Shown here: positions 2,592 through 64,000 of the stretch, one piece after another
Position numbering within the stretch: the first letter of the stretch is position 1
Layout: every line of letters begins with the position of its first letter
NCBI GenBank assembly: GCA_960531495.1
Contig: CAUIJY010000071.1
Coordinates: 620,001 to 684,000, forward strand
Origin: Zeus faber
Lineage: Eukaryota > Chordata > Actinopteri > Zeiformes > Zeidae
Direction: 5' to 3'
Length of the DNA: 64,000 nt
The notes under the pieces: generated by a model
What the model was told of the DNA's origin: nothing
Database searches by the model: none
Seen by the model: only the letters and a program-made list of their open reading frames with translations
Translations under genes and position numbers: made by a program

Positions 2592-2787
2592 ACAACATGT
2601 ATTTGTCGAGGTATGAGCATTTTCAGAACATTGGACGGTTTGCTGTCTAGCTGAATTAGAGAAACACCGAACCATTGTCTCTTCAGAGGTGAATGATTCA
2701 GAATGCTGCAGTACAGCATTGAAATTTAATTAATGTGATGAACTATTATGTGCTTCCTAAGTTTTTCTCTCAGATTTCTATGCCCAT
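2592..2787. repeat. Reference B1 monomer (196 bp)
   Basis: This is the first B of P and S blocks. Marks are gtcgaggtatgag head, acattggacgg, tagctg, gcattgaaat, taatgtgatg and ttcctaagtttttctctc, ending in ctatgccc. It is always followed by a B2-type monomer. Confidence 0.94.
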
Positions 2788-20599: not shown

Positions 20600-23035
20600 C
20601 TAACATGTATTTGTGGAGTTATGATCATTTTCATCATTGTGTGCACATGTGGGAAAAAACGCATTTTCAGCCGATTTAAACGTCGAAAAGGGGAATTGGT
20701 TAAACGCTTCAGTCATTACTCTGTGTGACAGTGTCAGACAGTTTAAATACAATGGTGAACTAGTATATGCTGCTAAAGTGTTGTTTGTCAACCAGTTTTA
20801 GGCCCATCTAACATGTATTTGTCGAGTTATGATCATTTTCATCATTATTTGTACATGTGGGAAAAAACGCATTTTCAGCCGATATAAACGTCGAAAAGGG
20901 GAATTGGTTAAACGCTTCAGTCATAACTCTGTGTGACAGTGTCAGACAGTTTAAATACAATGGTGAACTAGTATATGCTGCTAAAGCGTTGTTTGTCAAA
21001 CAGTTTTAGGCCCATACAACATGTATTTGACGAGGTATGAGCATTTTCAGAACATTGGACGGTTTGCTGTCTAGCTGAATTAGAGAAACACCGAACCATT
21101 GTCTCTTCAGAGGTGAATGATTCAGAATGCTGCAGTACAGCATAGAAATTTAATTAATATGATGAACTATTATGTGCTTCTTAAGTGTTTCTCACAGATT
21201 TCTAGGCCCATCTAACATGTATTTGTGGAGTTATGATCATTTTCATCATTGTGTGCACATGTGGGAAAAAACGCATTTTCAGCCGATTTAAACGTCGAAA
21301 AGGGGAATTGGTTAAACGCTTCAGTCATTACTCTGTGTGACAGTGTCAGACAGTTTAAATACAATGGTGAACTAGTATATGCTGCTAAAGTGTTGTTTGT
21401 CAACCAGTTTTAGGCCCATCTAACATGTATTTGTCGAGTTATGATCATTTTCATCATTGTGTGCACATGTGGGAAAAAACGCATTTTCAGCCGATTTAAA
21501 CGTCGAAAAGGGGAATTGGTTAAACGCTTCAGTCATAACTCTGTGTGACAGTGTCAGACAGTTTAAATACAATGGTGAACTAGTATATGCTGCTAAAGCG
21601 TTGTTTGTCAAACAGTTTTAGGCCCAAACAACATGTATTTGTCGAGGTATGAGCATTTTCAGAACATTGGACGGTTTGCTGTCTAGCTGAATTAGAGAAA
21701 CACCGAACCATTGTCTCTTCAGAGGTGAATGATTCAGAATGCTGCAGTACAGCATTGAAATTTAATTAATGTGATGAGCTATTATGTGCTTCCTAAGTTT
21801 TTCTCTCAGATTTCTATGCCCATCTAACATGTATTTCTGGAGTTATGATCATTTTCAGAACTTGTGACGGTTTGCTGTCTAACTGAATTAGAGAAACACC
21901 GAACCATTGTCTCTTCAGAGGTGAATGATTCAGAATGCTGCAGTACAGCATAGAAATTTAATTAATATGATGAACTATTATGTGCTTCTTAAGTGTTTCT
22001 CACAGATTTCTAGGCCCATCTAACATGTATTTGTGGAGTTATGATCATTTTCATCATTGTGTGCACATGTGGGAAAAAACGCATTTTCAGCCGATTTAAA
22101 CGTCGAAAAGGGGAATTGGTTAAACGCTTCAGTCATTACTCTGTGTGACAGTGTCAGACAGTTTAAATACAATGGTGAACTAGTATATGCTGCTAAAGTG
22201 TTGTTTGTCAACCAGTTTTAGGCCCATCTAACATGTATTTGTCGAGTTATGATCATTTTCATCATTGTGTGCACATGTGGGAAAAAACGCATTTTCAGCC
22301 GATTTAAACGTCGAAAAGGGGAATTGGTTAAACGCTTCAGTCATTACTCTGTGTGACAGTGTCAGACAGTTTAAATACAATGGTGAACTAGTATATGCTG
22401 CTAAAGCGTTGTTTGTCAAACAGTTTTAGGCCCATACAACATGTATTTGACGAGGTATGAGCATTTTCAGAACATTGGACGGTTTGCTGTCTAGCTGAAT
22501 TAGAGAAACACCGAACCATTGTCTCTTCAGAGGTGAATGATTCAGAATGCTGCAGTACAGCATAGAAATTTTATTAATATGATGAACTATTATGTGCTTC
22601 CTAAGTTTTTCTCTCAGATTTCTATGCCCATCTAACATGTATTTCTGGAGTTATGATCATTTTCAGAACTTGTGACGGTTTGCTGTCTAGCTGAATTAGA
22701 GAAACACCGAACCATTGTCTCTTCAGAGGTGAATGATTCAGAATGCTGTAGTACAGCATAGAAATTTAATTAATATGATGAACTATTATGTGCTTCTTAA
22801 GTGTTTCTCACAGATTTCTAGGCCCATCTAACATGTATTTGTGGAGTTATGATCATTTTCATCATTGTGTGCACATGTGGGAAAAAACGCATTTTCAGCC
22901 GATTTAAACGTCGAAAAGGGGAATTGGTTAAACGCTTCAGTCATTACTCTGTGTGACAGTGTCAGACAGTTTAAATACAATGGTGAACTAGTATATGCTG
23001 CTAAAGTGTTGTTTGTCAAACAGTTTTAGGCCCAT

Positions 23036-23243
23036 GTAAAATGTATTTGTCGAGTTATGATCATTTTCATCATTGTGTGCACATGTGGGAAAAAACGCAT
23101 TTTCAGCCGATTTAAACGTCGAAAAGGGGAATTGGTTAAACGCTTCAGTCATAACTCTGTGTGACAGTGTCAGACAGTTTAAATACAATGGTGAACTAGT
23201 ATATGCTGCTAAAGTGTTGTTTGTCAACAAGTTTTAGGCCCAT
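23036..23243. repeat. Reference A4 monomer
   Basis: A4 is the middle-type A found in U and V blocks. It has the gtaaaatg head and cataact of A2, but an aaagtg tail ending in caacaag, which runs into a ctaacatg junction. It occurs only at and beyond 22828, in 13 AAAB and both AAABB blocks. Confidence 0.93.
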
Positions 23244-23451
23244 CTAACATGTATTTGTCGAGTTATGATCATTTTCATCATTATGTGTACATGTGGGAAA
23301 AAACGCATTTTCAGCCGATTTAAACGTCGAAAAGGGGAATTGCTTGAACGCTTCAGTCAGTACTCTGTGTGACAGTGTCAGACAGTTTAAATACAATGGT
23401 GAACTAGTATATGCTGCTGAAGCGTTGTTTGTCAAACAGTTTTAGGCCCAT
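23244..23451. repeat. Reference A5 monomer
   Basis: Marks are gtcgag, tgtacatg, gcttgaacg, cagtact and gctgaagcg. It follows A4 and precedes B5. The copy at 33612 has a private G-to-T at 33705 (agggtaatt). Confidence 0.93.
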
Positions 23452-23647
23452 ACAACATGTATTTGTCGAGGTATGAGCATTTTCAGAACATTGGACGGTT
23501 TGCTGTCTAGCTGAATTAGAGAAACACCGAACCATTGTCTATTCAGAGGTGAATGATTCAGAATGCTGTAGTAGAGCATAGAAATTTAATTAATATGATG
23601 AACTATTATGTGCTTCTTAAGTGTTTCTCACAGATTTCTAGGCCCAT
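23452..23647. repeat. Reference B5 monomer
   Basis: This is a B with gtcgag head, ctattcag, tgtagtagagc (no CTGCAG) and a ttcttaag tail. Two alleles exist: ggacgg, as here, and ggactg at 19029, 35493, 37733, 42421 and 48321. Confidence 0.92.
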
Positions 23648-23855
23648 CTAACATGTATTTGTGGAGTTATGATCATTCTCATCATTGTGTGCACATGTGG
23701 GAAAAAACGCATTTTCAGCCGATTTAAATGTCGAAAAGGGGAATTGCTTGAACGCTTCAGTCATTACTCTGTGTGACAGTGTCAGACAGTTTAAATACAA
23801 TGGTGAACTAGTATATGCTGCTAAAGTGTTGTTTGTCAACCAGTTTTAGGCCCAT
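23648..23855. repeat. Reference A6 monomer
   Basis: This is the first A of Q' and U' blocks. It has an A1-like gtggag head, then cattctcatc, aaatgtcg and gcttgaacg, and an aaagtg tail. It is found at 19180, 23648, 29536, 33196, 35644, 37884, 40124, 42572, 47040, 48472, 52940 and 62478. Confidence 0.92.
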
Positions 23856-25067
23856 CTAACATGTATTTGTCGAGTTATGATCATTTTCATCATTATGTGT
23901 ACATGTGGGAAAAAACGCATTTTCAGCCGATTTAAACGTCGAAAAGGGGAATTGCTTAAACGCTTCAGTCATTTCTCTGTGTGACAGTGTCAGACAGTTT
24001 AAATACAATGGTGAACTAGTATATGCTGCTAAAGCGTTGTTTGTCAAACAGTTTTAGGCCCATACAACATGTATTTGACGAGGTATGAGCATTTTCAGAA
24101 CATTGGACGGTTTGCTGTCTAGCTGAATTAGAGAAACACCGAACCATTGTCTCTTCAGAGGTGAATGATTCAGAATGCTGCAGTACAGCATAGAAATTTA
24201 ATTAATATGATGAACTATTATGTGCTTCTTAAGTGTTTCTCACAGATTTCTAGGCCCATCTAACATGTATTTGTGGAGTTATGATCATTTTCATCATTGT
24301 GTGCACATGTGGGAAAAAACGCATTTTCAGCCGATTTAAACGTCGAAAAGGGGAATTGGTTAAACGCTTCAGTCATTACTCTGTGTGACAGTGTCAGACA
24401 GTTTAAATACAATGGTGAACTAGTATATGCTGCTAAAGTGTTGTTTGTCAAACAGTTTTAGGCCCATGTAAAATGTATTTGTCGAGTTATGATCATTTTC
24501 ATCATTGTGTGCACATGTGGGAAAAAACGCATTTTCAGCCGATTTAAACGTCGAAAAGGGGAATTGGTTAAACGCTTCAGTCATAACTCTGTGTGACAGT
24601 GTCAGACAGTTTAAATACAATGGTGAACTAGTATATGCTGCTAAAGCGTTGTTTGTCAAACAGTTTTAGGCCCAAACAACATGTATTTGTCGAGGTATGA
24701 GCATTTTCAGAACATTGGACGGTTTGCTGTCTAGCTGAATTAGAGAAACACCGAACCATTGTCTCTTCAGAGGTGAATGATTCAGAATGCTGCAGTACAG
24801 CATTGAAATTTAATTAATGTGATGAACTATTATGTGCTTCCTAAGTTTTTCTCTCAGATTTCTATGCCCATCTAACATGTATTTCTGGAGTTATGATCAT
24901 TTTCAGAACTTGTGACGGTTTGCTGTCTAACTGAATTAGAGAAACACCGAACCATTGTCTCTTCAGAGGTGAATGATTCAGAATGCTGCAGTACAGCATA
25001 GAAATTTAATTAATATGATGAACTATTATGTGCTTCTTAAGTGTTTCTCACAGATTTCTAGGCCCAT

Positions 25068-26487
25068 CTAACATGTATTTGTGGAGTTATGATCATTTTC
25101 ATCATTGTGTGCACATGTGGGAAAAAACGCATTTTCAGCCGATTTAAACGTCGAAAAGGGGAATTGGTTAAACGCTTCAGTCATTACTCTGTGTGACAGT
25201 GTCAGACAGTTTAAATACAATGGTGAACTAGTATATGCTGCTAAAGTGTTGTTTGTCAACCAGTTTTAGGCCCATCTAACATGTATTTGTCGAGTTATGA
25301 TCATTTTCATCATTATTTGTACATGTGGGAAAAAACGCATTTTCAGCCGATTTAAACGTCGAAAAGGGGAATTGCTTAAACGCTTCAGTCATTTCTCTGT
25401 GTGACAGTGTCAGACAGTTTAAATACAATGGTGAACTAGTATATGCTGCTAAAGCGTTGTTTGTCAAACAGTTTTAGGCCCATACAACATGTATTTGACG
25501 AGGTATGAGCATTTTCAGAACATTGGACGGTTTGCTGTCTAGCTGAATTAGAGAAACACCGAACCATTGTCTCTTCAGAGGTGAATGATTCAGAATGCTG
25601 CAGTACAGCATAGAAATTTAATTAATATGATGAACTATTATGTGCTTCTTAAGTGTTTCTCACAGATTTCTAGGCCCATCTAACATGTATTTGTGGAGTT
25701 ATGATCATTTTCATCATTGTGTGCACATGTGGGAAAAAACGCATTTTCAGCCGATTTAAACGTCGAAAAGGGGAATTGGTTAAACGCTTCAGTCATTACT
25801 CTGTGTGACAGTGTCAGACAGTTTAAATACAATGGTGAACTAGTATATGCTGCTAAAGTGTTGTTTGTCAAACAGTTTTAGGCCCATGTAAAATGTATTT
25901 GTCGAGTTATGATCATTTTCATCATTGTGTGCACATGTGGGAAAAAACGCATTTTCAGCCGATTTAAACGTCGAAAAGGGGAATTGGTTAAACGCTTCAG
26001 TCATAACTCTGTGTGACAGTGTCAGACAGTTTAAATACAATGGTGAACTAGTATATGCTGCTAAAGCGTTGTTTGTCAAACAGTTTTAGGCCCAAACAAC
26101 ATGTATTTGTCGAGGTATGAGCATTTTCAGAACATTGGACGGTTTGCTGTCTAGCTGAATTAGAGAAACACCGAACCATTGTCTCTTCAGAGGTGAATGA
26201 TTCAGAATGCTGCAGTACAGCATTGAAATTTAATTAATGTGATGAACTATTATGTGCTTCCTAAGTTTTTCTCTCAGATTTCTATGCCCATCTAACATGT
26301 ATTTCTGGAGTTATGATCATTTTCAGAACTTGTGACGGTTTGCTGTCTAACTGAATTAGAGAAACACCGAACCATTGTCTCTTCAGAGGTGAATGATTCA
26401 GAATGCTGCAGTACAGCATAGAAATTTAATTAATATGATGAACTATTATGTGCTTCTTAAGTGTTTCTCACAGATTTCTAGGCCCAT
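25068..26487. repeat. Extra Qr + P segment (1,420 bp) between two 22-mers
   Basis: A1 is followed by a hybrid A at 25276 with the R-type ttatttgtacatg front but the A3 gcttaaacg/catttct rear, then B3; P follows at 25680. The hybrid points to an exchange between an R and a Q-type block. The extra 1,420 bp turns the 4,468-bp unit into a 5,888-bp repeat distance. Confidence 0.9.
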
Positions 26488-29400
26488 CTAACATGTATTT
26501 GTGGAGTTATGATCATTTTCATCATTGTGTGCACATGTGGGAAAAAACGCATTTTCAGCCGATTTAAACGTCGAAAAGGGGAATTGGTTAAACGCTTCAG
26601 TCATTACTCTGTGTGACAGTGTCAGACAGTTTAAATACAATGGTGAACTAGTATATGCTGCTAAAGTGTTGTTTGTCAACCAGTTTTAGGCCCATCTAAC
26701 ATGTATTTGTCGAGTTATGATCATTTTCATCATTATTTGTACATGTGGGAAAAAACGCATTTTCAGCCGATATAAACGTCGAAAAGGGGAATTGGTTAAA
26801 CGCTTCAGTCATAACTCTGTGTGACAGTGTCAGACAGTTTAAATACAATGGTGAACTAGTATATGCTGCTAAAGCGTTGTTTGTCAAACAGTTTTAGGCC
26901 CATACAACATGTATTTGACGAGGTATGAGCATTTTCAGAACATTGGACGGTTTGCTGTCTAGCTGAATTAGAGAAACACCGAACCATTGTCTCTTCAGAG
27001 GTGAATGATTCAGAATGCTGCAGTACAGCATAGAAATTTAATTAATATGATGAACTATTATGTGCTTCTTAAGTGTTTCTCACAGATTTCTAGGCCCATC
27101 TAACATGTATTTGTGGAGTTATGATCATTTTCATCATTGTGTGCACATGTGGGAAAAAACGCATTTTCAGCCGATTTAAACGTCGAAAAGGGGAATTGGT
27201 TAAACGCTTCAGTCATTACTCTGTGTGACAGTGTCAGACAGTTTAAATACAATGGTGAACTAGTATATGCTGCTAAAGTGTTGTTTGTCAACCAGTTTTA
27301 GGCCCATCTAACATGTATTTGTCGAGTTATGATCATTTTCATCATTGTGTGCACATGTGGGAAAAAACGCATTTTCAGCCGATTTAAACGTCGAAAAGGG
27401 GAATTGGTTAAACGCTTCAGTCATAACTCTGTGTGACAGTGTCAGACAGTTTAAATACAATGGTGAACTAGTATATGCTGCTAAAGCGTTGTTTGTCAAA
27501 CAGTTTTAGGCCCAAACAACATGTATTTGTCGAGGTATGAGCATTTTCAGAACATTGGACGGTTTGCTGTCTAGCTGAATTAGAGAAACACCGAACCATT
27601 GTCTCTTCAGAGGTGAATGATTCAGAATGCTGCAGTACAGCATTGAAATTTAATTAATGTGATGAGCTATTATGTGCTTCCTAAGTTTTTCTCTCAGATT
27701 TCTATGCCCATCTAACATGTATTTCTGGAGTTATGATCATTTTCAGAACTTGTGACGGTTTGCTGTCTAACTGAATTAGAGAAACACCGAACCATTGTCT
27801 CTTCAGAGGTGAATGATTCAGAATGCTGCAGTACAGCATAGAAATTTAATTAATATGATGAACTATTATGTGCTTCTTAAGTGTTTCTCACAGATTTCTA
27901 GGCCCATCTAACATGTATTTGTGGAGTTATGATCATTTTCATCATTGTGTGCACATGTGGGAAAAAACGCATTTTCAGCCGATTTAAACGTCGAAAAGGG
28001 GAATTGGTTAAACGCTTCAGTCATTACTCTGTGTGACAGTGTCAGACAGTTTAAATACAATGGTGAACTAGTATATGCTGCTAAAGTGTTGTTTGTCAAC
28101 CAGTTTTAGGCCCATCTAACATGTATTTGTCGAGTTATGATCATTTTCATCATTGTGTGCACATGTGGGAAAAAACGCATTTTCAGCCGATTTAAACGTC
28201 GAAAAGGGGAATTGGTTAAACGCTTCAGTCATTACTCTGTGTGACAGTGTCAGACAGTTTAAATACAATGGTGAACTAGTATATGCTGCTAAAGCGTTGT
28301 TTGTCAAACAGTTTTAGGCCCATACAACATGTATTTGACGAGGTATGAGCATTTTCAGAACATTGGACGGTTTGCTGTCTAGCTGAATTAGAGAAACACC
28401 GAACCATTGTCTCTTCAGAGGTGAATGATTCAGAATGCTGCAGTACAGCATAGAAATTTTATTAATATGATGAACTATTATGTGCTTCCTAAGTTTTTCT
28501 CTCAGATTTCTATGCCCATCTAACATGTATTTCTGGAGTTATGATCATTTTCAGAACTTGTGACGGTTTGCTGTCTAGCTGAATTAGAGAAACACCGAAC
28601 CATTGTCTCTTCAGAGGTGAATGATTCAGAATGCTGTAGTACAGCATAGAAATTTAATTAATATGATGAACTATTATGTGCTTCTTAAGTGTTTCTCACA
28701 GATTTCTAGGCCCATCTAACATGTATTTGTGGAGTTATGATCATTTTCATCATTGTGTGCACATGTGGGAAAAAACGCATTTTCAGCCGATTTAAACGTC
28801 GAAAAGGGGAATTGGTTAAACGCTTCAGTCATTACTCTGTGTGACAGTGTCAGACAGTTTAAATACAATGGTGAACTAGTATATGCTGCTAAAGTGTTGT
28901 TTGTCAAACAGTTTTAGGCCCATGTAAAATGTATTTGTCGAGTTATGATCATTTTCATCATTGTGTGCACATGTGGGAAAAAACGCATTTTCAGCCGATT
29001 TAAACGTCGAAAAGGGGAATTGGTTAAACGCTTCAGTCATAACTCTGTGTGACAGTGTCAGACAGTTTAAATACAATGGTGAACTAGTATATGCTGCTAA
29101 AGTGTTGTTTGTCAACAAGTTTTAGGCCCATCTAACATGTATTTGTCGAGTTATGATCATTTTCATCATTATGTGTACATGTGGGAAAAAACGCATTTTC
29201 AGCCGATTTAAACGTCGAAAAGGGGAATTGCTTGAACGCTTCAGTCAGTACTCTGTGTGACAGTGTCAGACAGTTTAAATACAATGGTGAACTAGTATAT
29301 GCTGCTGAAGCGTTGTTTGTCAAACAGTTTTAGGCCCATACAACATGTATTTGTCGAGGTATGAGCATTTTCAGAACATTGGACGGTTTGCTGTCTAGCT

Positions 29401-30955
29401 GAATTAGAGAAACACCGAACCATTGTCTATTCAGAGGTGAATGATTCAGAATGCTGTAGTAGAGCATAGAAATTTAATTAATATGATGAACTATTATGTG
29501 CTTCTTAAGTGTTTCTCACAGATTTCTAGGCCCATCTAACATGTATTTGTGGAGTTATGATCATTCTCATCATTGTGTGCACATGTGGGAAAAAACGCAT
29601 TTTCAGCCGATTTAAATGTCGAAAAGGGGAATTGCTTGAACGCTTCAGTCATTACTCTGTGTGACAGTGTCAGACAGTTTAAATACAATGGTGAACTAGT
29701 ATATGCTGCTAAAGTGTTGTTTGTCAACCAGTTTTAGGCCCATCTAACATGTATTTGTCGAGTTATGATCATTTTCATCATTATGTGTACATGTGGGAAA
29801 AAACGCATTTTCAGCCGATTTAAACGTCGAAAAGGGGAATTGCTTAAACGCTTCAGTCATTTCTCTGTGTGACAGTGTCAGACAGTTTAAATACAATGGT
29901 GAACTAGTATATGCTGCTAAAGCGTTGTTTGTCAAACAGTTTTAGGCCCATACAACATGTATTTGACGAGGTATGAGCATTTTCAGAACATTGGACGGTT
30001 TGCTGTCTAGCTGAATTAGAGAAACACCGAACCATTGTCTCTTCAGAGGTGAATGATTCAGAATGCTGCAGTACAGCATAGAAATTTAATTAATATGATG
30101 AACTATTATGTGCTTCTTAAGTGTTTCTCACAGATTTCTAGGCCCATCTAACATGTATTTGTGGAGTTATGATCATTTTCATCATTGTGTGCACATGTGG
30201 GAAAAAACGCATTTTCAGCCGATTTAAACGTCGAAAAGGGGAATTGGTTAAACGCTTCAGTCATTACTCTGTGTGACAGTGTCAGACAGTTTAAATACAA
30301 TGGTGAACTAGTATATGCTGCTAAAGTGTTGTTTGTCAAACAGTTTTAGGCCCATGTAAAATGTATTTGTCGAGTTATGATCATTTTCATCATTGTGTGC
30401 ACATGTGGGAAAAAACGCATTTTCAGCCGATTTAAACGTCGAAAAGGGGAATTGGTTAAACGCTTCAGTCATAACTCTGTGTGACAGTGTCAGACAGTTT
30501 AAATACAATGGTGAACTAGTATATGCTGCTAAAGCGTTGTTTGTCAAACAGTTTTAGGCCCAAACAACATGTATTTGTCGAGGTATGAGCATTTTCAGAA
30601 CATTGGACGGTTTGCTGTCTAGCTGAATTAGAGAAACACCGAACCATTGTCTCTTCAGAGGTGAATGATTCAGAATGCTGCAGTACAGCATTGAAATTTA
30701 ATTAATGTGATGAACTATTATGTGCTTCCTAAGTTTTTCTCTCAGATTTCTATGCCCATCTAACATGTATTTCTGGAGTTATGATCATTTTCAGAACTTG
30801 TGACGGTTTGCTGTCTAACTGAATTAGAGAAACACCGAACCATTGTCTCTTCAGAGGTGAATGATTCAGAATGCTGCAGTACAGCATAGAAATTTAATTA
30901 ATATGATGAACTATTATGTGCTTCTTAAGTGTTTCTCACAGATTTCTAGGCCCAT
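26488..30955. repeat. 22-mer HOR (4,468 bp), copy 2: R-S-T-U-Q'-P
   Basis: Starts are 26488, 27100, 27908, 28716, 29536 and 30148. It shares private markers with 20600-25067 at a constant 5,888-bp offset: gatataaacg in R, gagct in the S B1, and ctgtag at 28637. The two are recent duplicates. Confidence 0.92.
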
Positions 30956-33900
30956 CTAACATGTATTTGTGGAGTTATGATCATTTTCATCATTGTGTGC
31001 ACATGTGGGAAAAAACGCATTTTCAGCCGATTTAAACGTCGAAAAGGGGAATTGGTTAAACGCTTCAGTCATTACTCTGTGTGACAGTGTCAGACAGTTT
31101 AAATACAATGGTGAACTAGTATATGCTGCTAAAGTGTTGTTTGTCAACCAGTTTTAGGCCCATCTAACATGTATTTGTCGAGTTATGATCATTTTCATCA
31201 TTATTTGTACATGTGGGAAAAAACGCATTTTCAGCCGATTTAAACGTCGAAAAGGGGAATTGGTTAAACGCTTCAGTCATAACTCTGTGTGACAGTGTCA
31301 GACAGTTTAAATACAATGGTGAACTAGTATATGCTGCTAAAGCGTTGTTTGTCAAACAGTTTTAGGCCCATACAACATGTATTTGACGAGGTATGAGCAT
31401 TTTCAGAACATTGGACGGTTTGCTGTCTAGCTGAATTAGAGAAACACCGAACCATTGTCTCTTCAGAGGTGAATGATTCAGAATGCTGCAGTACAGCATA
31501 GAAATTTTATTAATATGATGAACTATTATGTGCTTCTTAAGTGTTTCTCACAGATTTCTAGGCCCATCTAACATGTATTTGTGGAGTTATGATCATTTTC
31601 ATCATTGTGTGCACATGTGGGAAAAAACGCATTTTCAGCCGATTTAAACGTCGAAAAGGGGAATTGGTTAAACGCTTCAGTCATTACTCTGTGTGACAGT
31701 GTCAGACAGTTTAAATACAATGGTGAACTAGTATATGCTGCTAAAGTGTTGTTTGTCAACCAGTTTTAGGCCCATCTAACATGTATTTGTCGAGTTATGA
31801 TCATTTTCATCATTGTGTGCACATGTGGGAAAAAACGCATTTTCAGCCGATTTAAACGTCGAAAAGGGGAATTGGTTAAACGCTTCAGTCATTACTCTGT
31901 GTGACAGTGTCAGACAGTTTAAATACAATGGTGAACTAGTATATGCTGCTAAAGCGTTGTTTGTCAAACAGTTTTAGGCCCATACAACATGTATTTGACG
32001 AGGTATGAGCATTTTCAGAACATTGGACGGTTTGCTGTCTAGCTGAATTAGAGAAACACCGAACCATTGTCTCTTCAGAGGTGAATGATTCAGAATGCTG
32101 CAGTACAGCATAGAAATTTTATTAATATGATGAACTATTATGTGCTTCCTAAGTTTTTCTCTCAGATTTCTATGCCCATCTAACATGTATTTCTGGAGTT
32201 ATGATCATTTTCAGAACTTGTGACGGTTTGCTGTCTAGCTGAATTAGAGAAACACCGAACCATTGTCTCTTCAGAGGTGAATGATTCAGAATGCTGCAGT
32301 ACAGCATAGAAATTTAATTAATATGATGAACTATTATGTGCTTCTTAAGTGTTTCTCACAGATTTCTAGGCCCATCTAACATGTATTTGTGGAGTTATGA
32401 TCATTTTCATCATTGTGTGCACATGTGGGAAAAAACGCATTTTCAGCCGATTTAAACGTCGAAAAGGGGAATTGGTTAAACGCTTCAGTCATTACTCTGT
32501 GTGACAGTGTCAGACAGTTTAAATACAATGGTGAACTAGTATATGCTGCTAAAGTGTTGTTTGTCAAACAGTTTTAGGCCCATTTAAAATGTATTTGTCG
32601 AGTTATGATCATTTTCATCATTGTGTGCACATGTGGGAAAAAACGCATTTTCAGCCGATTTAAACGTCGAAAAGGGGAATTGGTTAAACGCTTCAGTCAT
32701 AACTCTGTGTGACAGTGTCAGACAGTTTAAATACAATGGTGAACTAGTATATGCTGCTAAAGTGTTGTTTGTCAACAAGTTTTAGGCCCATCTAACATGT
32801 ATTTGTCGAGTTATGATCATTTTCATCATTATGTGTACATGTGGGAAAAAACGCATTTTCAGCCGATTTAAACGTCGAAAAGGGGAATTGCTTGAACGCT
32901 TCAGTCAGTACTCTGTGTGACAGTGTCAGACAGTTTAAATACAATGGTGAACTAGTATATGCTGCTGAAGCGTTGTTTGTCAAACAGTTTTAGGCCCATA
33001 CAACATGTATTTGTCGAGGTATGAGCATTTTCAGAACATTGGACGGTTTGCTGTCTAGCTGAATTAGAGAAACACCGAACCATTGTCTATTCAGAGGTGA
33101 ATGATTCAGAATGCTGTAGTAGAGCATAGAAATTTAATTAATATGATGAACTATTATGTGCTTCTTAAGTGTTTCTCACAGATTTCTAGGCCCATCTAAC
33201 ATGTATTTGTGGAGTTATGATCATTCTCATCATTGTGTGCACATGTGGGAAAAAACGCATTTTCAGCCGATTTAAATGTCGAAAAGGGGAATTGCTTGAA
33301 CGCTTCAGTCATTACTCTGTGTGACAGTGTCAGACAGTTTAAATACAATGGTGAACTAGTATATGCTGCTAAAGTGTTGTTTGTCAAACAGTTTTAGGCC
33401 CATGTAAAATGTATTTGTCGAGTTATGATCATTTTCATCATTGTGTGCACATGTGGGAAAAAACGCATTTTCAGCCGATTTAAACGTCGAAAAGGGGAAT
33501 TGGTTAAACGCTTCAGTCATAACTCTGTGTGACAGTGTCAGACAGTTTAAATACAATGGTGAACTAGTATATGCTGCTAAAGTGTTGTTTGTCAACAAGT
33601 TTTAGGCCCATCTAACATGTATTTGTCGAGTTATGATCATTTTCATCATTATGTGTACATGTGGGAAAAAACGCATTTTCAGCCGATTTAAACGTCGAAA
33701 AGGGTAATTGCTTGAACGCTTCAGTCAGTACTCTGTGTGACAGTGTCAGACAGTTTAAATACAATGGTGAACTAGTATATGCTGCTGAAGCGTTGTTTGT
33801 CAAACAGTTTTAGGCCCATACAACATGTATTTGTCGAGGTATGAGCATTTTCAGAACATTGGACGGTTTGCTGTCTAGCTGAATTAGAGAAACACCGAAC

Positions 33901-41400: not shown

Positions 41401-41751
41401 GGACGGTTTGCTGTCTAGCTGAATTAGAGAAACACCGAACCATTGTCTCTTCAGAGGTGAATGATTCAGAATGCTGCAGTACAGCATTGAAATTTAATTA
41501 ATGTGATGAACTATTATGTGCTTCCTAAGTTTTTCTCTCAGATTTCTATGCCCATCTAACATGTATTTCTGGAGTTATGATCATTTTCAGAACTTGTGAC
41601 GGTTTGCTGTCTAACTGAATTAGAGAAACACCGAACCATTGTCTCTTCAGAGGTGAATGATTCAGAATGCTGCAGTACAGCATAGAAATTTAATTAATAT
41701 GATGAGCTATTATGTGCTTCTTAAGTGTTTCTCACAGATTTCTAGGCCCAT
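38496..41751. repeat. T-U-U'-P segment (3,256 bp), duplicate of 31568-34823
   Basis: Starts are T 38496, U 39304, U' 40124 and P 40944, each exactly 6,928 bp from the matching blocks at 31568, 32376, 33196 and 34016. The rare U' structure is shared, which supports common descent. A private T-to-A lies at 39468 (actagaat), and 32584 and 33705 are not shared. Confidence 0.9.
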
Positions 41752-43991: not shown

Positions 43992-46900
43992 CTAACATGT
44001 ATTTGTGGAGTTATGATCATTTTCATCATTGTGTGCACATGTGGGAAAAAACGCATTTTCAGCCGATTTAAACGTCGAAAAGGGGAATTGGTTAAACGCT
44101 TCAGTCATTACTCTGTGTGACAGTGTCAGACAGTTTAAATACAATGGTGAACTAGTATATGCTGCTAAAGTGTTGTTTGTCAACCAGTTTTAGGCCCATC
44201 TAACATGTATTTGTCGAGTTATGATCATTTTCATCATTATTTGTACATGTGGGAAAAAACGCATTTTCAGCCGATATAAACGTCGAAAAGGGGAATTGGT
44301 TAAACGCTTCAGTCATAACTCTGTGTGACAGTGTCAGACAGTTTAAATACAATGGTGAACTAGTATATGCTGCTAAAGCGTTGTTTGTCAAACAGTTTTA
44401 GGCCCATACAACATGTATTTGACGAGGTATGAGCATTTTCAGAACATTGGACGGTTTGCTGTCTAGCTGAATTAGAGAAACACCGAACCATTGTCTCTTC
44501 AGAGGTGAATGATTCAGAATGCTGCAGTACAGCATAGAAATTTAATTAATATGATGAACTATTATGTGCTTCTTAAGTGTTTCTCACAGATTTCTAGGCC
44601 CATCTAACATGTATTTGTGGAGTTATGATCATTTTCATCATTGTGTGCACATGTGGGAAAAAACGCATTTTCAGCCGATTTAAACGTCGAAAAGGGGAAT
44701 TGGTTAAACGCTTCAGTCATTACTCTGTGTGACAGTGTCAGACAGTTTAAATACAATGGTGAACTAGTATATGCTGCTAAAGTGTTGTTTGTCAACCAGT
44801 TTTAGGCCCATCTAACATGTATTTGTCGAGTTATGATCATTTTCATCATTGTGTGCACATGTGGGAAAAAACGCATTTTCAGCCGATTTAAACGTCGAAA
44901 AGGGGAATTGGTTAAACGCTTCAGTCATAACTCTGTGTGACAGTGTCAGACAGTTTAAATACAATGGTGAACTAGTATATGCTGCTAAAGCGTTGTTTGT
45001 CAAACAGTTTTAGGCCCAAACAACATGTATTTGTCGAGGTATGAGCATTTTCAGAACATTGGACGGTTTGCTGTCTAGCTGAATTAGAGAAACACCGAAC
45101 CATTGTCTCTTCAGAGGTGAATGATTCAGAATGCTGCAGTACAGCATTGAAATTTAATTAATGTGATGAACTATTATGTGCTTCCTAAGTTTTTCTCTCA
45201 GATTTCTATGCCCATCTAACATGTATTTCTGGAGTTATGATCATTTTCAGAACTTGTGACGGTTTGCTGTCTAACTGAATTAGAGAAACACCGAACCATT
45301 GTCTCTTCAGAGGTGAATGATTCAGAATGCTGCAGTACAGCATAGAAATTTAATTAATATGATGAACTATTATGTGCTTCTTAAGTGTTTCTCACAGATT
45401 TCTAGGCCCATCTAACATGTATTTGTGGAGTTATGATCATTTTCATCATTGTGTGCACATGTGGGAAAAAACGCATTTTCAGCCGATTTAAACGTCGAAA
45501 AGGGGAATTGGTTAAACGCTTCAGTCATTACTCTGTGTGACAGTGTCAGACAGTTTAAATACAATGGTGAACTAGTATATGCTGCTAAAGTGTTGTTTGT
45601 CAACCAGTTTTAGGCCCATCTAACATGTATTTGTCGAGTTATGATCATTTTCATCATTGTGTGCACATGTGGGAAAAAACGCATTTTCAGCCGATTTAAA
45701 CGTCGAAAAGGGGAATTGGTTAAACGCTTCAGTCATTACTCTGTGTGACAGTGTCAGACAGTTTAAATACAATGGTGAACTAGTATATGCTGCTAAAGCG
45801 TTGTTTGTCAAACAGTTTTAGGCCCATACAACATGTATTTGACGAGGTATGAGCATTTTCAGAACATTGGACGGTTTGCTGTCTAGCTGAATTAGAGAAA
45901 CACCGAACCATTGTCTCTTCAGAGGTGAATGATTCAGAATGCTGCAGTACAGCATAGAAATTTTATTAATATGATGAACTATTATGTGCTTCCTAAGTTT
46001 TTCTCTCAGATTTCTATGCCCATCTAACATGTATTTCTGGAGTTATGATCATTTTCAGAACTTGTGACGGTTTGCTGTCTAGCTGAATTAGAGAAACACC
46101 GAACCATTGTCTCTTCAGAGGTGAATGATTCAGAATGCTGCAGTACAGCATAGAAATTTAATTAATATGATGAACTATTATGTGCTTCTTAAGTGTTTCT
46201 CACAGATTTCTAGGCCCATCTAACATGTATTTGTGGAGTTATGATCATTTTCATCATTGTGTGCACATGTGGGAAAAAACGCATTTTCAGCCGATTTAAA
46301 CGTCGAAAAGGGGAATTGGTTAAACGCTTCAGTCATTACTCTGTGTGACAGTGTCAGACAGTTTAAATACAATGGTGAACTAGTATATGCTGCTAAAGTG
46401 TTGTTTGTCAAACAGTTTTAGGCCCATGTAAAATGTATTTGTCGAGTTATGATCATTTTCATCATTGTGTGCACATGTGGGAAAAAACGCATTTTCAGCC
46501 GATTTAAACGTCGAAAAGGGGAATTGGTTAAACGCTTCAGTCATAACTCTGTGTGACAGTGTCAGACAGTTTAAATACAATGGTGAACTAGTATATGCTG
46601 CTAAAGTGTTGTTTGTCAACAAGTTTTAGGCCCATCTAACATGTATTTGTCGAGTTATGATCATTTTCATCATTATGTGTACATGTGGGAAAAAACGCAT
46701 TTTCAGCCGATTTAAACGTCGAAAAGGGGAATTGCTTGAACGCTTCAGTCAGTACTCTGTGTGACAGTGTCAGACAGTTTAAATACAATGGTGAACTAGT
46801 ATATGCTGCTGAAGCGTTGTTTGTCAAACAGTTTTAGGCCCATACAACATGTATTTGTCGAGGTATGAGCATTTTCAGAACATTGGACGGTTTGCTGTCT

Positions 46901-49891
46901 AGCTGAATTAGAGAAACACCGAACCATTGTCTATTCAGAGGTGAATGATTCAGAATGCTGTAGTAGAGCATAGAAATTTAATTAATATGATGAACTATTA
47001 TGTGCTTCTTAAGTGTTTCTCACAGATTTCTAGGCCCATCTAACATGTATTTGTGGAGTTATGATCATTCTCATCATTGTGTGCACATGTGGGAAAAAAC
47101 GCATTTTCAGCCGATTTAAATGTCGAAAAGGGGAATTGCTTGAACGCTTCAGTCATTACTCTGTGTGACAGTGTCAGACAGTTTAAATACAATGGTGAAC
47201 TAGTATATGCTGCTAAAGTGTTGTTTGTCAACCAGTTTTAGGCCCATCTAACATGTATTTGTCGAGTTATGATCATTTTCATCATTATGTGTACATGTGG
47301 GAAAAAACGCATTTTCAGCCGATTTAAACGTCGAAAAGGGGAATTGCTTAAACGCTTCAGTCATTTCTCTGTGTGACAGTGTCAGACAGTTTAAATACAA
47401 TGGTGAACTAGTATATGCTGCTAAAGCGTTGTTTGTCAAACAGTTTTAGGCCCATACAACATGTATTTGACGAGGTATGAGCATTTTCAGAACATTGGAC
47501 GGTTTGCTGTCTAGCTGAATTAGAGAAACACCGAACCATTGTCTCTTCAGAGGTGAATGATTCAGAATGCTGCAGTACAGCATAGAAATTTAATTAATAT
47601 GATGAACTATTATGTGCTTCTTAAGTGTTTCTCACAGATTTCTAGGCCCATCTAACATGTATTTGTGGAGTTATGATCATTTTCATCATTGTGTGCACAT
47701 GTGGGAAAAAACGCATTTTCAGCCGATTTAAACGTCGAAAAGGGGAATTGGTTAAACGCTTCAGTCATTACTCTGTGTGACAGTGTCAGACAGTTTAAAT
47801 ACAATGGTGAACTAGTATATGCTGCTAAAGTGTTGTTTGTCAAACAGTTTTAGGCCCATGTAAAATGTATTTGTCGAGTTATGATCATTTTCATCATTGT
47901 GTGCACATGTGGGAAAAAACGCATTTTCAGCCGATTTAAACGTCGAAAAGGGGAATTGGTTAAACGCTTCAGTCATAACTCTGTGTGACAGTGTCAGACA
48001 GTTTAAATACAATGGTGAACTAGTATATGCTGCTAAAGTGTTGTTTGTCAACAAGTTTTAGGCCCATCTAACATGTATTTGTCGAGTTATGATCATTTTC
48101 ATCATTATGTGTACATGTGGGAAAAAACGCATTTTCAGCCGATTTAAACGTCGAAAAGGGGAATTGCTTGAACGCTTCAGTCAGTACTCTGTGTGACAGT
48201 GTCAGACAGTTTAAATACAATGGTGAACTAGTATATGCTGCTGAAGCGTTGTTTGTCAAACAGTTTTAGGCCCATACAACATGTATTTGTCGAGGTATGA
48301 GCATTTTCAGAACATTGGACTGTTTGCTGTCTAGCTGAATTAGAGAAACACCGAACCATTGTCTATTCAGAGGTGAATGATTCAGAATGCTGTAGTAGAG
48401 CATAGAAATTTAATTAATATGATGAACTATTATGTGCTTCTTAAGTGTTTCTCACAGATTTCTAGGCCCATCTAACATGTATTTGTGGAGTTATGATCAT
48501 TCTCATCATTGTGTGCACATGTGGGAAAAAACGCATTTTCAGCCGATTTAAATGTCGAAAAGGGGAATTGCTTGAACGCTTCAGTCATTACTCTGTGTGA
48601 CAGTGTCAGACAGTTTAAATACAATGGTGAACTAGTATATGCTGCTAAAGTGTTGTTTGTCAACCAGTTTTAGGCCCATCTAACATGTATTTGTCGAGTT
48701 ATGATCATTTTCATCATTATGTGTACATGTGGGAAAAAACGCATTTTCAGCCGATTTAAACGTCGAAAAGGGGAATTGCTTAAACGCTTCAGTCATTTCT
48801 CTGTGTGACAGTGTCAGACAGTTTAAATACAATGGTGAACTAGTATATGCTGCTAAAGCGTTGTTTGTCAAACAGTTTTAGGCCCATACAACATGTATTT
48901 GACGAGGTATGAGCATTTTCAGAACATTGGACGGTTTGCTGTCTAGCTGAATTAGAGAAACACCGAACCATTGTCTCTTCAGAGGTGAATGATTCAGAAT
49001 GCTGCAGTACAGCATAGAAATTTAATTAATATGATGAACTATTATGTGCTTCTTAAGTGTTTCTCACAGATTTCTAGGCCCATCTAACATGTATTTGTGG
49101 AGTTATGATCATTTTCATCATTGTGTGCACATGTGGGAAAAAACGCATTTTCAGCCGATTTAAACGTCGAAAAGGGGAATTGGTTAAACGCTTCAGTCAT
49201 TACTCTGTGTGACAGTGTCAGACAGTTTAAATACAATGGTGAACTAGTATATGCTGCTAAAGTGTTGTTTGTCAAACAGTTTTAGGCCCATGTAAAATGT
49301 ATTTGTCGAGTTATGATCATTTTCATCATTGTGTGCACATGTGGGAAAAAACGCATTTTCAGCCGATTTAAACGTCGAAAAGGGGAATTGGTTAAACGCT
49401 TCAGTCATAACTCTGTGTGACAGTGTCAGACAGTTTAAATACAATGGTGAACTAGTATATGCTGCTAAAGCGTTGTTTGTCAAACAGTTTTAGGCCCAAA
49501 CAACATGTATTTGTCGAGGTATGAGCATTTTCAGAACATTGGACGGTTTGCTGTCTAGCTGAATTAGAGAAACACCGAACCATTGTCTCTTCAGAGGTGA
49601 ATGATTCAGAATGCTGCAGTACAGCATTGAAATTTAATTAATGTGATGAACTATTATGTGCTTCCTAAGTTTTTCTCTCAGATTTCTATGCCCATCTAAC
49701 ATGTATTTCTGGAGTTATGATCATTTTCAGAACTTGTGACGGTTTGCTGTCTAACTGAATTAGAGAAACACCGAACCATTGTCTCTTCAGAGGTGAATGA
49801 TTCAGAATGCTGCAGTACAGCATAGAAATTTAATTAATATGATGAACTATTATGTGCTTCTTAAGTGTTTCTCACAGATTTCTAGGCCCAT
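43992..49891. repeat. 22-mer HOR with inserted U-Q' (5,900 bp)
   Basis: Order is R 43992, S 44604, T 45412, U 46220, Q' 47040, then an extra U 47652 and Q' 48472, then P 49084. Without the 1,432-bp U-Q' it equals the canonical 4,468-bp unit. The extra U has the ggactg allele (48321) but lacks the linked gagct (A at 47606). Confidence 0.91.
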
Positions 49892-52800
49892 CTAACATGT
49901 ATTTGTGGAGTTATGATCATTTTCATCATTGTGTGCACATGTGGGAAAAAACGCATTTTCAGCCGATTTAAACGTCGAAAAGGGGAATTGGTTAAACGCT
50001 TCAGTCATTACTCTGTGTGACAGTGTCAGACAGTTTAAATACAATGGTGAACTAGTATATGCTGCTAAAGTGTTGTTTGTCAACCAGTTTTAGGCCCATC
50101 TAACATGTATTTGTCGAGTTATGATCATTTTCATCATTATTTGTACATGTGGGAAAAAACGCATTTTCAGCCGATATAAACGTCGAAAAGGGGAATTGGT
50201 TAAACGCTTCAGTCATAACTCTGTGTGACAGTGTCAGACAGTTTAAATACAATGGTGAACTAGTATATGCTGCTAAAGCGTTGTTTGTCAAACAGTTTTA
50301 GGCCCATACAACATGTATTTGACGAGGTATGAGCATTTTCAGAACATTGGACGGTTTGCTGTCTAGCTGAATTAGAGAAACACCGAACCATTGTCTCTTC
50401 AGAGGTGAATGATTCAGAATGCTGCAGTACAGCATAGAAATTTAATTAATATGATGAACTATTATGTGCTTCTTAAGTGTTTCTCACAGATTTCTAGGCC
50501 CATCTAACATGTATTTGTGGAGTTATGATCATTTTCATCATTGTGTGCACATGTGGGAAAAAACGCATTTTCAGCCGATTTAAACGTCGAAAAGGGGAAT
50601 TGGTTAAACGCTTCAGTCATTACTCTGTGTGACAGTGTCAGACAGTTTAAATACAATGGTGAACTAGTATATGCTGCTAAAGTGTTGTTTGTCAACCAGT
50701 TTTAGGCCCATCTAACATGTATTTGTCGAGTTATGATCATTTTCATCATTGTGTGCACATGTGGGAAAAAACGCATTTTCAGCCGATTTAAACGTCGAAA
50801 AGGGGAATTGGTTAAACGCTTCAGTCATAACTCTGTGTGACAGTGTCAGACAGTTTAAATACAATGGTGAACTAGTATATGCTGCTAAAGCGTTGTTTGT
50901 CAAACAGTTTTAGGCCCAAACAACATGTATTTGTCGAGGTATGAGCATTTTCAGAACATTGGACGGTTTGCTGTCTAGCTGAATTAGAGAAACACCGAAC
51001 CATTGTCTCTTCAGAGGTGAATGATTCAGAATGCTGCAGTACAGCATTGAAATTTAATTAATGTGATGAACTATTATGTGCTTCCTAAGTTTTTCTCTCA
51101 GATTTCTATGCCCATCTAACATGTATTTCTGGAGTTATGATCATTTTCAGAACTTGTGACGGTTTGCTGTCTAACTGAATTAGAGAAACACCGAACCATT
51201 GTCTCTTCAGAGGTGAATGATTCAGAATGCTGCAGTACAGCATAGAAATTTAATTAATATGATGAACTATTATGTGCTTCTTAAGTGTTTCTCACAGATT
51301 TCTAGGCCCATCTAACATGTATTTGTGGAGTTATGATCATTTTCATCATTGTGTGCACATGTGGGAAAAAACGCATTTTCAGCCGATTTAAACGTCGAAA
51401 AGGGGAATTGGTTAAACGCTTCAGTCATTACTCTGTGTGACAGTGTCAGACAGTTTAAATACAATGGTGAACTAGTATATGCTGCTAAAGTGTTGTTTGT
51501 CAACCAGTTTTAGGCCCATCTAACATGTATTTGTCGAGTTATGATCATTTTCATCATTGTGTGCACATGTGGGAAAAAACGCATTTTCAGCCGATTTAAA
51601 CGTCGAAAAGGGGAATTGGTTAAACGCTTCAGTCATTACTCTGTGTGACAGTGTCAGACAGTTTAAATACAATGGTGAACTAGTATATGCTGCTAAAGCG
51701 TTGTTTGTCAAACAGTTTTAGGCCCATACAACATGTATTTGACGAGGTATGAGCATTTTCAGAACATTGGACGGTTTGCTGTCTAGCTGAATTAGAGAAA
51801 CACCGAACCATTGTCTCTTCAGAGGTGAATGATTCAGAATGCTGCAGTACAGCATAGAAATTTTATTAATATGATGAACTATTATGTGCTTCCTAAGTTT
51901 TTCTCTCAGATTTCTATGCCCATCTAACATGTATTTCTGGAGTTATGATCATTTTCAGAACTTGTGACGGTTTGCTGTCTAGCTGAATTAGAGAAACACC
52001 GAACCATTGTCTCTTCAGAGGTGAATGATTCAGAATGCTGCAGTACAGCATAGAAATTTAATTAATATGATGAACTATTATGTGCTTCTTAAGTGTTTCT
52101 CACAGATTTCTAGGCCCATCTAACATGTATTTGTGGAGTTATGATCATTTTCATCATTGTGTGCACATGTGGGAAAAAACGCATTTTCAGCCGATTTAAA
52201 CGTCGAAAAGGGGAATTGGTTAAACGCTTCAGTCATTACTCTGTGTGACAGTGTCAGACAGTTTAAATACAATGGTGAACTAGTATATGCTGCTAAAGTG
52301 TTGTTTGTCAAACAGTTTTAGGCCCATGTAAAATGTATTTGTCGAGTTATGATCATTTTCATCATTGTGTGCACATGTGGGAAAAAACGCATTTTCAGCC
52401 GATTTAAACGTCGAAAAGGGGAATTGGTTAAACGCTTCAGTCATAACTCTGTGTGACAGTGTCAGACAGTTTAAATACAATGGTGAACTAGTATATGCTG
52501 CTAAAGTGTTGTTTGTCAACAAGTTTTAGGCCCATCTAACATGTATTTGTCGAGTTATGATCATTTTCATCATTATGTGTACATGTGGGAAAAAACGCAT
52601 TTTCAGCCGATTTAAACGTCGAAAAGGGGAATTGCTTGAACGCTTCAGTCAGTACTCTGTGTGACAGTGTCAGACAGTTTAAATACAATGGTGAACTAGT
52701 ATATGCTGCTGAAGCGTTGTTTGTCAAACAGTTTTAGGCCCATACAACATGTATTTGTCGAGGTATGAGCATTTTCAGAACATTGGACGGTTTGCTGTCT

Positions 52801-54359
52801 AGCTGAATTAGAGAAACACCGAACCATTGTCTATTCAGAGGTGAATGATTCAGAATGCTGTAGTAGAGCATAGAAATTTAATTAATATGATGAACTATTA
52901 TGTGCTTCTTAAGTGTTTCTCACAGATTTCTAGGCCCATCTAACATGTATTTGTGGAGTTATGATCATTCTCATCATTGTGTGCACATGTGGGAAAAAAC
53001 GCATTTTCAGCCGATTTAAATGTCGAAAAGGGGAATTGCTTGAACGCTTCAGTCATTACTCTGTGTGACAGTGTCAGACAGTTTAAATACAATGGTGAAC
53101 TAGTATATGCTGCTAAAGTGTTGTTTGTCAACCAGTTTTAGGCCCATCTAACATGTATTTGTCGAGTTATGATCATTTTCATCATTATGTGTACATGTGG
53201 GAAAAAACGCATTTTCAGCCGATTTAAACGTCGAAAAGGGGAATTGCTTAAACGCTTCAGTCATTTCTCTGTGTGACAGTGTCAGACAGTTTAAATACAA
53301 TGGTGAACTAGTATATGCTGCTAAAGCGTTGTTTGTCAAACAGTTTTAGGCCCATACAACATGTATTTGACGAGGTATGAGCATTTTCAGAACATTGGAC
53401 GGTTTGCTGTCTAGCTGAATTAGAGAAACACCGAACCATTGTCTCTTCAGAGGTGAATGATTCAGAATGCTGCAGTACAGCATAGAAATTTAATTAATAT
53501 GATGAACTATTATGTGCTTCTTAAGTGTTTCTCACAGATTTCTAGGCCCATCTAACATGTATTTGTGGAGTTATGATCATTTTCATCATTGTGTGCACAT
53601 GTGGGAAAAAACGCATTTTCAGCCGATTTAAACGTCGAAAAGGGGAATTGGTTAAACGCTTCAGTCATTACTCTGTGTGACAGTGTCAGACAGTTTAAAT
53701 ACAATGGTGAACTAGTATATGCTGCTAAAGTGTTGTTTGTCAAACAGTTTTAGGCCCATGTAAAATGTATTTGTCGAGTTATGATCATTTTCATCATTGT
53801 GTGCACATGTGGGAAAAAACGCATTTTCAGCCGATTTAAACGTCGAAAAGGGGAATTGGTTAAACGCTTCAGTCATAACTCTGTGTGACAGTGTCAGACA
53901 GTTTAAATACAATGGTGAACTAGTATATGCTGCTAAAGCGTTGTTTGTCAAACAGTTTTAGGCCCAAACAACATGTATTTGTCGAGGTATGAGCATTTTC
54001 AGAACATTGGACGGTTTGCTGTCTAGCTGAATTAGAGAAACACCGAACCATTGTCTCTTCAGAGGTGAATGATTCAGAATGCTGCAGTACAGCATTGAAA
54101 TTTAATTAATGTGATGAACTATTATGTGCTTCCTAAGTTTTTCTCTCAGATTTCTATGCCCATCTAACATGTATTTCTGGAGTTATGATCATTTTCAGAA
54201 CTTGTGACGGTTTGCTGTCTAACTGAATTAGAGAAACACCGAACCATTGTCTCTTCAGAGGTGAATGATTCAGAATGCTGCAGTACAGCATAGAAATTTA
54301 ATTAATATGATGAACTATTATGTGCTTCTTAAGTGTTTCTCACAGATTTCTAGGCCCAT
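49892..54359. repeat. 22-mer HOR (4,468 bp): R-S-T-U-Q'-P
   Basis: Starts are 49892, 50504, 51312, 52120, 52940 and 53552. Its first five blocks match 43992-47651 at an offset of 5,900 bp, including gatataaacg in R. Its P matches 49084 at 4,468 bp. I see no private differences on inspection. Confidence 0.92.
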
Positions 54360-63897: not shown

Positions 63898-64000
63898 CTA
63901 ACATGTATTTGTGGAGTTATGATCATTTTCATCATTGTGTGCACATGTGGGAAAAAACGCATTTTCAGCCGATTTAAACGTCGAAAAGGGGAATTGGTTA
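63898..64000. repeat. Partial A1 monomer (right truncated by window)
   Basis: This is the first 103 bases of an A1 (gtggag, tgtgcacatg, ggtta). The array continues past the window with no sign of an edge. Confidence 0.95.

What the first reader, a model, noticed from the sequence alone, without database searches (positions are those of the whole stretch)
20600..54359. 22-monomer, 4,468-bp higher-order repeat in the order R-S-T-U-Q'-P
Three intact copies (20600, 26488, 49892) and one with an insertion (43992) share the same six-block order, each block identified by its own diagnostic bases. Length matches 13x208 + 9x196. Most other blocks right of 18.5 kb can be read as deletions, insertions or hybrids of this unit. 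A nested structure (monomer, 3-5-mer block, 22-mer) is more elaborate than a simple HOR.
Basis: seen in the sequence. Interest (0 to 1): 0.7.

Follow-up and report, generated by a model that had tools for sequence, protein, structure and literature searches.

The report
Patchwork satellite repeat array, centromere-like

Summary
The window is pure satellite: 315 monomers of two types, A (208 bp) and B (196 bp). The 4,468-bp string R-S-T-U-Q'-P is present at 20600 and 26488 (0 differences), at 49892 (2 differences), and at 43992 with a 1,432-bp duplication of U-Q'. Clustering recovers the six block classes. The intact 22-mer never occurs head to tail; the long units that do are 29-mers (5,900 bp, 0 differences; 5,888 bp, 4 differences) and, in part, a 20-mer. 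The 4,468-bp lag is strongest inside 18.5-64 kb but absent within the other parts of the 127-kb array. The array has a homogenised core and decayed edges, with in-register mosaic monomers and blocks. Another chromosome carries a different 30-mer. Best explanation: a centromere-type satellite array reshaped by in-register unequal exchange or break-induced copying. TTAGGG repeats and a split RAG1 suggest a teleost. Long HORs are described in primates and chicken, nested ones in human. New member of a known kind; moderate interest.

The parts
1..64000 (+). Satellite array of A (208 bp) and B (196 bp) monomers, head to tail, no other DNA found; part of a 127-kb array at G000:C78:599,078 to about 726,220
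2170..12097 (+). 7-mer zone: 1,420-bp repeat of P (A1 A3 B1 B2) and Q-type (such as A2 A4 B3) blocks, with some variant blocks
   Evidence: exact lag-1,420 run of 2,734 bp from 4689
11290..18561 (+). 4-mer zone: 808-bp P block in tandem, with some variant copies
   Evidence: exact lag-808 run of 2,753 bp from 11159
20600..25067 (+). 22-mer copy 1, R-S-T-U-Q'-P, 4,468 bp
26488..30955 (+). 22-mer copy 2, 0 differences from copy 1
43992..49891 (+). 22-mer copy with an extra U'-Q' (5,900 bp in all); 0 differences from the copy at 49892 outside the extra piece
47652..49083 (+). The extra 1,432 bp: a local duplication of U-Q', 1 difference from the preceding 1,432 bp
49892..54359 (+). 22-mer copy at 49892, 2 differences from copies 1 and 2
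19786..31561 (+). Two head-to-tail 29-mers of 5,888 bp (P-R-S-T-U-Q'-P-R type), 4 differences; 2 differences if counted from 19382
41746..53545 (+). Two head-to-tail 29-mers of 5,900 bp (U'-Q'-P-R-S-T-U-Q'), 0 differences; exact match runs 6,332 bp
54354..61651 (+). 20-mer of 4,053 bp (R-type, T, V, T, P) and a second copy that shares its first 3,245 bp with 0 differences and then goes on differently; exact run 4,594 bp from 53398
55775..56790 (+). Hybrid block V (A16 A5 A17 B1 B2): 5' part of U joined to 3' part of P inside one A monomer; second copy at 59828-60843

Best explanation
This is a centromere-type (or pericentromeric) satellite array of a vertebrate, most likely a teleost, built from two related monomer families A and B in short blocks (in this array usually 1-3 A, then 1-2 B). 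The blocks are the currency of rearrangement: pairing stays in monomer register, and unequal exchange, or out-of-register restart of replication as in the break-induced replication model, duplicates, deletes and fuses whole blocks. The 22-mer is one such composite: two slightly diverged 7-mers (R-S and Q'-P, 8 and 4 differences in 1,420 bp from the Q-P 7-mer of the left zone) around an 8-mer (T-U). It was copied a few times in a 45-kb island, together with an extra 7-mer (29-mers), before further exchange broke it up. Shown: the anatomy, the exact duplications, the mosaics, the core-to-edge gradient, and a different arrangement on another chromosome. Inferred: the exchange or BIR mechanism, the order of events, and a role in centromere or pericentric heterochromatin.
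For: All 314 full-length monomers in the window are 208, 196 or 197 bp, so rearrangement keeps register. Tandem near-identical 29-mers and a partly repeated 20-mer. V is a one-crossover U/P hybrid with one private base in 1,016 bp. Perfect single-breakpoint mosaics: 13 of 48 A and 5 of 31 B haplotypes tested; no column-order permutation of 200 reaches either count (means 4.9 and 0.9). Private haplotypes make up 78% of monomers at the left edge, 4-33% from 609 to 639 kb, 0-8% from 639 to 714 kb and 70-80% at the right edge. A 40-kb sample of C20 carries a 30-mer of 6,168 bp (11,148-bp run, 25 differences) and shares 10 of 193 exact haplotypes with C78; a 20-kb sample of C149 shares 32 of 98. 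27,048 A and 21,722 B cores genome-wide, reversed-pattern controls 0. In the truncated place lists the arrays lie near an end of the chromosome-scale contigs: C1 64.65-65.31 of 65.76 Mb, C2 0.09-0.24 of 52.95, C3 37.98-38.78 of 40.01, C7 34.57-35.64 of 36.10, C20 0.58-0.64 of 28.87.
Against: No CENP-A, methylation or FISH data, so centromere function is untested. No CENP-B box: best match has 3 mismatches at the fixed positions, the commonest result for shuffled monomers. C3 also has a small B cluster at 3.78 Mb, and C78 has further satellite beyond this array, so one site per chromosome is not strict. The place lists are truncated and mostly one strand, so the other chromosome ends were not surveyed. 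The block order is not shown to exceed neighbour linkage (Markov control). Perfect 5,900-bp duplicates could in part be assembly artefacts; reads were not available.
Confidence: 0.7

Rival explanations
1. The array is a true canonical 22-mer HOR array; other blocks are deletions, insertions and hybrids of that unit.
For: P-R-S-T-U-Q' is the best-supported block cycle and 4,468 bp the top lag in 18.5-64 kb; 52 of 60 blocks there lie within 3 nt of the six classes.
Against: No two intact 22-mers are adjacent; 0 bp of lag-4,468 similarity within each of the other parts of the array; only 4 copies, one interrupted; in the right-flank core 18 of 38 blocks belong to the six classes and 8 of 37 pairs follow the order, in the left flank 2 of 20 and 0 of 19.
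Confidence: 0.15
2. It is a subtelomeric or interstitial heterochromatic satellite without a centromere role; the HOR structure is a by-product of neutral unequal exchange.
For: The arrays listed lie within about 2 Mb of contig ends, which also fits subtelomeres; a small cluster occurs elsewhere (C3 3.78 Mb); no CENP-B box.
Against: In the lists seen, the main arrays sit at one end per contig: on C1 the listed exact forward matches all lie at 64.65-65.31 Mb, while the listed TTAGGG repeats are at the other end (whether the satellite end also has TTAGGG was not seen). In zig-zag eel the centromeric satellite behaves like this and the subtelomeric one can be at both ends (PMC8273981, passages). 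Different long repeats on different chromosomes are typical of centromeric satellites (recalled).
Confidence: 0.25
3. Some or all of the long perfect duplications are assembly artefacts in a repetitive contig.
For: 0 differences over 6,332 bp at lag 5,900 in a 2.4-Mb contig.
Against: Copies are told apart elsewhere by variants (B9/B1, B10/B5, B6/B7); the longer repeats show graded similarity, 0 to 3.4 differences per kb, and the edge gradient is not expected of a misassembly.
Confidence: 0.1

Closest known systems
Human alpha-satellite cascading HORs (chromosome 15 15mer and 20mer; PMC11050224, abstract and passages seen)
   Same: Monomer types recur within one unit, giving sub-periods; canonical and variant copies; about 20 monomers per unit.
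   Different: There 429 15mer and 164 20mer copies; here 4 copies of the 22-mer, no intact ones adjacent. Monomer of 171 bp there, 208/196 bp here; sequences not compared.
Human centromere 8 layers (review PMC8997354, passages seen)
   Same: Decayed monomers at the edges, younger more uniform HORs inside, zones of different HOR size side by side.
   Different: About 2 Mb there, 127 kb here; CENP-A mapped there, nothing mapped here.
Chicken CNM HORs at acrocentric centromeres (PMC9974502, passages seen)
   Same: Non-primate vertebrate; HOR units of 26-98 monomers; acrocentric location.
   Different: 41-bp monomer, 5-162 units per cluster.
Fish centromeric satellites: medaka (PMC5705604, passages), large yellow croaker Cen-42/Cen-168 (PMC12631908, passages), zig-zag eel Cen-524 (PMC8273981, passages)
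   Same: Similar genome size in medaka (678-744 Mb), arrays of 20-345 kb and a reported long-range higher-order structure in medaka, a higher-order form in croaker, usually one site per chromosome in eel.
   Different: Other monomer lengths in croaker (42 bp) and eel (524 bp); the passages seen describe no 20- to 30-mer units of two monomer families.

Membership tests
Higher-order repeat (Willard type, as defined in PMC11050224) | Multi-monomer copies nearly identical to each other (<5%) | tested here: met
   0-2 differences in 4,468 bp
Higher-order repeat (Willard type, as defined in PMC11050224) | Copies organised head to tail | tested here: not met
   Not for the 22-mer; met for 29-mers, 7-mer and 4-mer, in part for the 20-mer
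Higher-order repeat (Willard type, as defined in PMC11050224) | All monomers within a copy are of different types, 20-40% apart | tested here: not met
   A versus B 36-42% apart, but A versus A at most 13 of 208 in the window, and A2 occurs three times in one unit
Cascading HOR | Monomer types repeated inside a canonical copy, giving sub-periods | tested here: met
   17 distinct sequences in 22 places at 20600, 16 at 49892; sub-period lags 808, 1,420, 2,240 and 3,048 bp
Cascading HOR | Tandem array of many canonical copies | tested here: not met
   3 intact copies and one with an insert; no two intact copies adjacent, only the copy with the insert (43992-49891) directly followed by an intact one (49892)
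Centromeric satellite | CENP-A nucleosomes on the repeat | not testable with these tools
   no chromatin data
Centromeric satellite | One major array region per chromosome | tested here: inconclusive
   C1, C2, C3, C7 and C20 show main arrays near one end in truncated lists; small extra cluster on C3
Centromeric satellite | Homogenised core, decayed edges | tested here: met
Centromeric satellite with CENP-B box (mammalian) | TTCGNNNNANNCGGG in monomers (motif recalled) | tested here: not met
   3 mismatches at best in the 13 haplotypes scanned, as in most shuffles

The most novel reading that the evidence does not exclude
A teleost centromere caught while building a long HOR: 7-mers of two monomer families diverge, fuse with an 8-mer into a 22-mer, and are copied as 22+7-mers by in-register exchange or break-induced replication, with each chromosome assembling its own 20- to 30-mer. 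That would show primate-style layered, chromosome-specific HOR evolution arising independently in fish.
Probability: 0.35. Interest if true: 0.5.

Novelty: new member of a known kind. Interest (0 to 1): 0.33.

Why it matters
It gives a bounded 127-kb array, with both decayed edges, in which intermediate steps of HOR formation (hybrid blocks, perfect young tandem duplications, zones of different unit length) can be read base by base outside mammals and birds. It is useful for testing unequal-exchange against break-induced-replication models of satellite evolution. It does not overturn anything known.

Tried and rejected
Regular-expression segmentation timed out and was replaced by Hamming-distance anchors; one lag script also timed out and was rewritten. 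Rfam (gathering threshold) and tRNA scans of the window gave nothing. Six satellite oligos searched for in the paper library: 0 papers. One 30-base A-monomer pattern, exact, in viral contigs: 0 matches. Random block order was rejected by shuffles; the first-order Markov control did not separate the block order from neighbour linkage. CENP-B box rejected. Species identification by fetching RAG1 failed for lack of letters. Dropped before counting: two monomer intervals longer than 300 bp on the + strand of C78, haplotypes outside 607.5-714.6 kb, those of non-canonical length and those without two commoner possible parents; only 40 of 625 candidates were scored by the tool.

Full report
WHAT IS THERE. 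The window is one uninterrupted satellite array. A shared 40-bp anchor cuts it into 315 monomers; the 314 full-length ones are type A of 208 bp (184) and type B of 196 bp (128) or 197 bp (2). A and B align at 58-64% identity but at 83-95% over the first 40 bp. The array is highly homogenised: 184 A monomers show 29 distinct sequences and the 128 B monomers of 196 bp show 21. No tRNA and no Rfam match at the gathering scores. In the window the blocks have five shapes: AABB 41, AAB 26, AAAB 14, ABB 2, AAABB 2.

THE 22-MER. Writing the array in haplotype tokens shows blocks P (A1 A3 B1 B2), R (A2 A10 B3), S (A2 A9 B9/B1 B2), T (A2 A8 B4 B10/B5), U (A1 A5 A6 B6) and Q' (A7 A4 B3). R-S-T-U-Q'-P adds up to 13 A and 9 B, 4,468 bp. 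It occurs at 20600 and 26488 with 0 differences, at 49892 with 2, and at 43992 with 1,432 bp extra. The extra piece is a second U-Q' with 1 difference from the first; without it the copy equals that at 49892. Clustering of the 60 blocks from 18.5 to 63.9 kb recovers the six classes (P and S only 3.7 nt apart on average), 52 of 60 blocks lie within 3 nt of one, and 36 of 59 neighbour pairs follow the order against a shuffle mean of 7.7 and maximum of 18 in 10,000. A Markov chain of the window's own blocks does as well for repeated words (459 of 1,000 runs).

WHAT THE UNIT IS NOT. No intact 22-mer is followed by another. The copies at 20600 and 26488 are 5,888 bp apart, those at 43992 and 49892 are 5,900 bp apart. 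The tandem neighbours are 29-mers: 5,900 bp at 41746 and 47646 with 0 differences (exact run 6,332 bp), and 5,888 bp at 19786 and 25674 with 4 differences (2 if counted from 19382). A 4,053-bp 20-mer at 54354 is followed at 58407 by a copy of its first 3,245 bp with 0 differences; over the full 4,053 bp there are 273 differences, because the second copy goes on with another block. The longest lag-4,468 run has 13 monomers, and the best identity of one 4,468-bp stretch to the next is 0.94. Inside 18.5-64 kb, 4,468 bp is still the top lag (13,324 bp). It covers 0 bp in window 0-18.5 kb, in the left flank and in the right flank each taken alone, and 1,203 bp more when window and right flank are joined. 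Over the core as a whole it ranks fifth. No further gapless copy was found in the array.

THE WHOLE ARRAY. The window is C78:620,001-684,000 of an 803-Mb genome in 153 contigs. The array runs from 599,078 to about 726,220. It is zoned: a 1,420-bp 7-mer zone, an 808-bp 4-mer zone, the 22/29-mer island, 20-mer-like units, then units with A-A-A-B-B blocks. Private haplotypes make up 78% of monomers at the left edge, 4-33% from 609 to 639 kb, 0-8% from 639 to 714 kb and 70-80% at the right edge, the pattern expected when exchange homogenises the middle and spares the ends.

HOW IT FORMED. R-S differs from the Q-P 7-mer of the left zone by 8 of 1,420 bases and Q'-P by 4, so the 22-mer reads as 7+8+7. 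Block V follows U up to a crossover inside its third monomer and then follows P, with one private base in 1,016 bp. 13 of 48 A and 5 of 31 B haplotypes tested are perfect one-breakpoint mosaics of commoner ones, against means of 4.9 and 0.9 when column order is permuted, none of 200 reaching the observed count. Rearrangement in the window thus keeps monomer register. Both unequal exchange and break-induced replication, the two models set out in PMC8997354 (passages), fit; the sequence of one individual does not separate them.

OTHER CHROMOSOMES. A 40-kb sample of C20 has 152 A and 41 B of full length and a 6,168-bp 30-mer (11,148-bp run, 25 differences); 10 of 193 monomers match a C78 haplotype exactly. 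A 20-kb sample of C149 shares 32 of 98. Genome-wide there are 27,048 A cores and 21,722 B cores with up to 3 mismatches, reversed controls 0. Main arrays lie near one end of C1, C2, C3, C7 and C20 in the truncated lists seen. The genome has long TTAGGG runs and RAG1 as two matches 784 bp apart in the conserved region. RAG1 marks a jawed vertebrate; an intron there is, from memory, a teleost trait. The species is not identified.

COMPARISON AND NOVELTY. Units with repeated monomer types are called cascading HORs in human chromosome 15 (PMC11050224, abstract and passages). Chicken acrocentric centromeres have HORs of 26-98 monomers (PMC9974502, passages). The review PMC8997354 (passages) gives 34 monomers as the longest human HOR; later titles name a 52mer in human and a 59mer in orangutan (listing only). 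In fish, the croaker paper reports a 168-bp higher-order form of a 42-bp repeat (PMC12631908, passages), and the medaka paper a long-range higher-order structure (PMC5705604, passages). My searches of the open library showed lists, most of them capped (for example 25 of 463 and 30 of 158 papers), in which I saw no title or abstract start on a 20- to 30-mer fish HOR. I read passages of six papers, no paper in full, and the library lacks most subscription journals, so this is not a claim that none is in print. I therefore call this a new member of a known kind.

Mended after rereading the calls: the difference count of the 5,888-bp pair (4, not 2, at the block boundary), the share of private haplotypes left of 639 kb, the 1,203-bp match across the window end, the number of papers seen (six), and the block shapes.

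Noticed in passing
G000:C20:622,685-640,000 (L031-L032): Another chromosome has a tidier long repeat: a 30-mer of 6,168 bp in tandem (11,148-bp run, 25 differences), A-rich.
   Followed up: partly
G000:C78:726,200-733,300 (L013): Right of the array lies an AT-rich satellite with periods near 36, 59, 95 and 154 bp, then about 18 A/B monomers in inverted orientation.
   Followed up: partly
G000:C3:37.98-38.78 Mb: Small B clusters recur with the same internal spacing (+1007, +1212, +1408, +2198) at 37.979, 38.378, 38.601 and 38.778 Mb, suggesting larger duplicated units.
   Followed up: no
54770 and 58823 (also C78:692,424): The only three B monomers of 197 bp on the + strand of this array; they sit in the 20-mer-type units and suggest that these are copies of one ancestor.
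   Followed up: partly
B monomers, positions 117-135 of the monomer: A 7-bp inverted repeat AATGCTG-CAGTA-CAGCATT, perfect in B1 and 6 bp in B2: a small dyad, as often noted in centromeric satellites (the last remark recalled).
   Followed up: no
L022, L023 (C78:570-590 kb): Left flank holds retroelement remains: RNase H, integrase, reverse transcriptase and gag domains in 4 of 6 open frames scanned.
   Followed up: no
C78:598.8 kb and 726.2 kb: Near the left end a deletion inside a monomer, and at the right end the switch to the next satellite, both follow TGTATTTGTCGAGT; may be chance.
   Followed up: no
G000:C2:92-235 kb: Sparse A cores with recurring 664- and 1,975-bp spacings and no exact forward B core listed: a different arrangement of the A family.
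   Followed up: no
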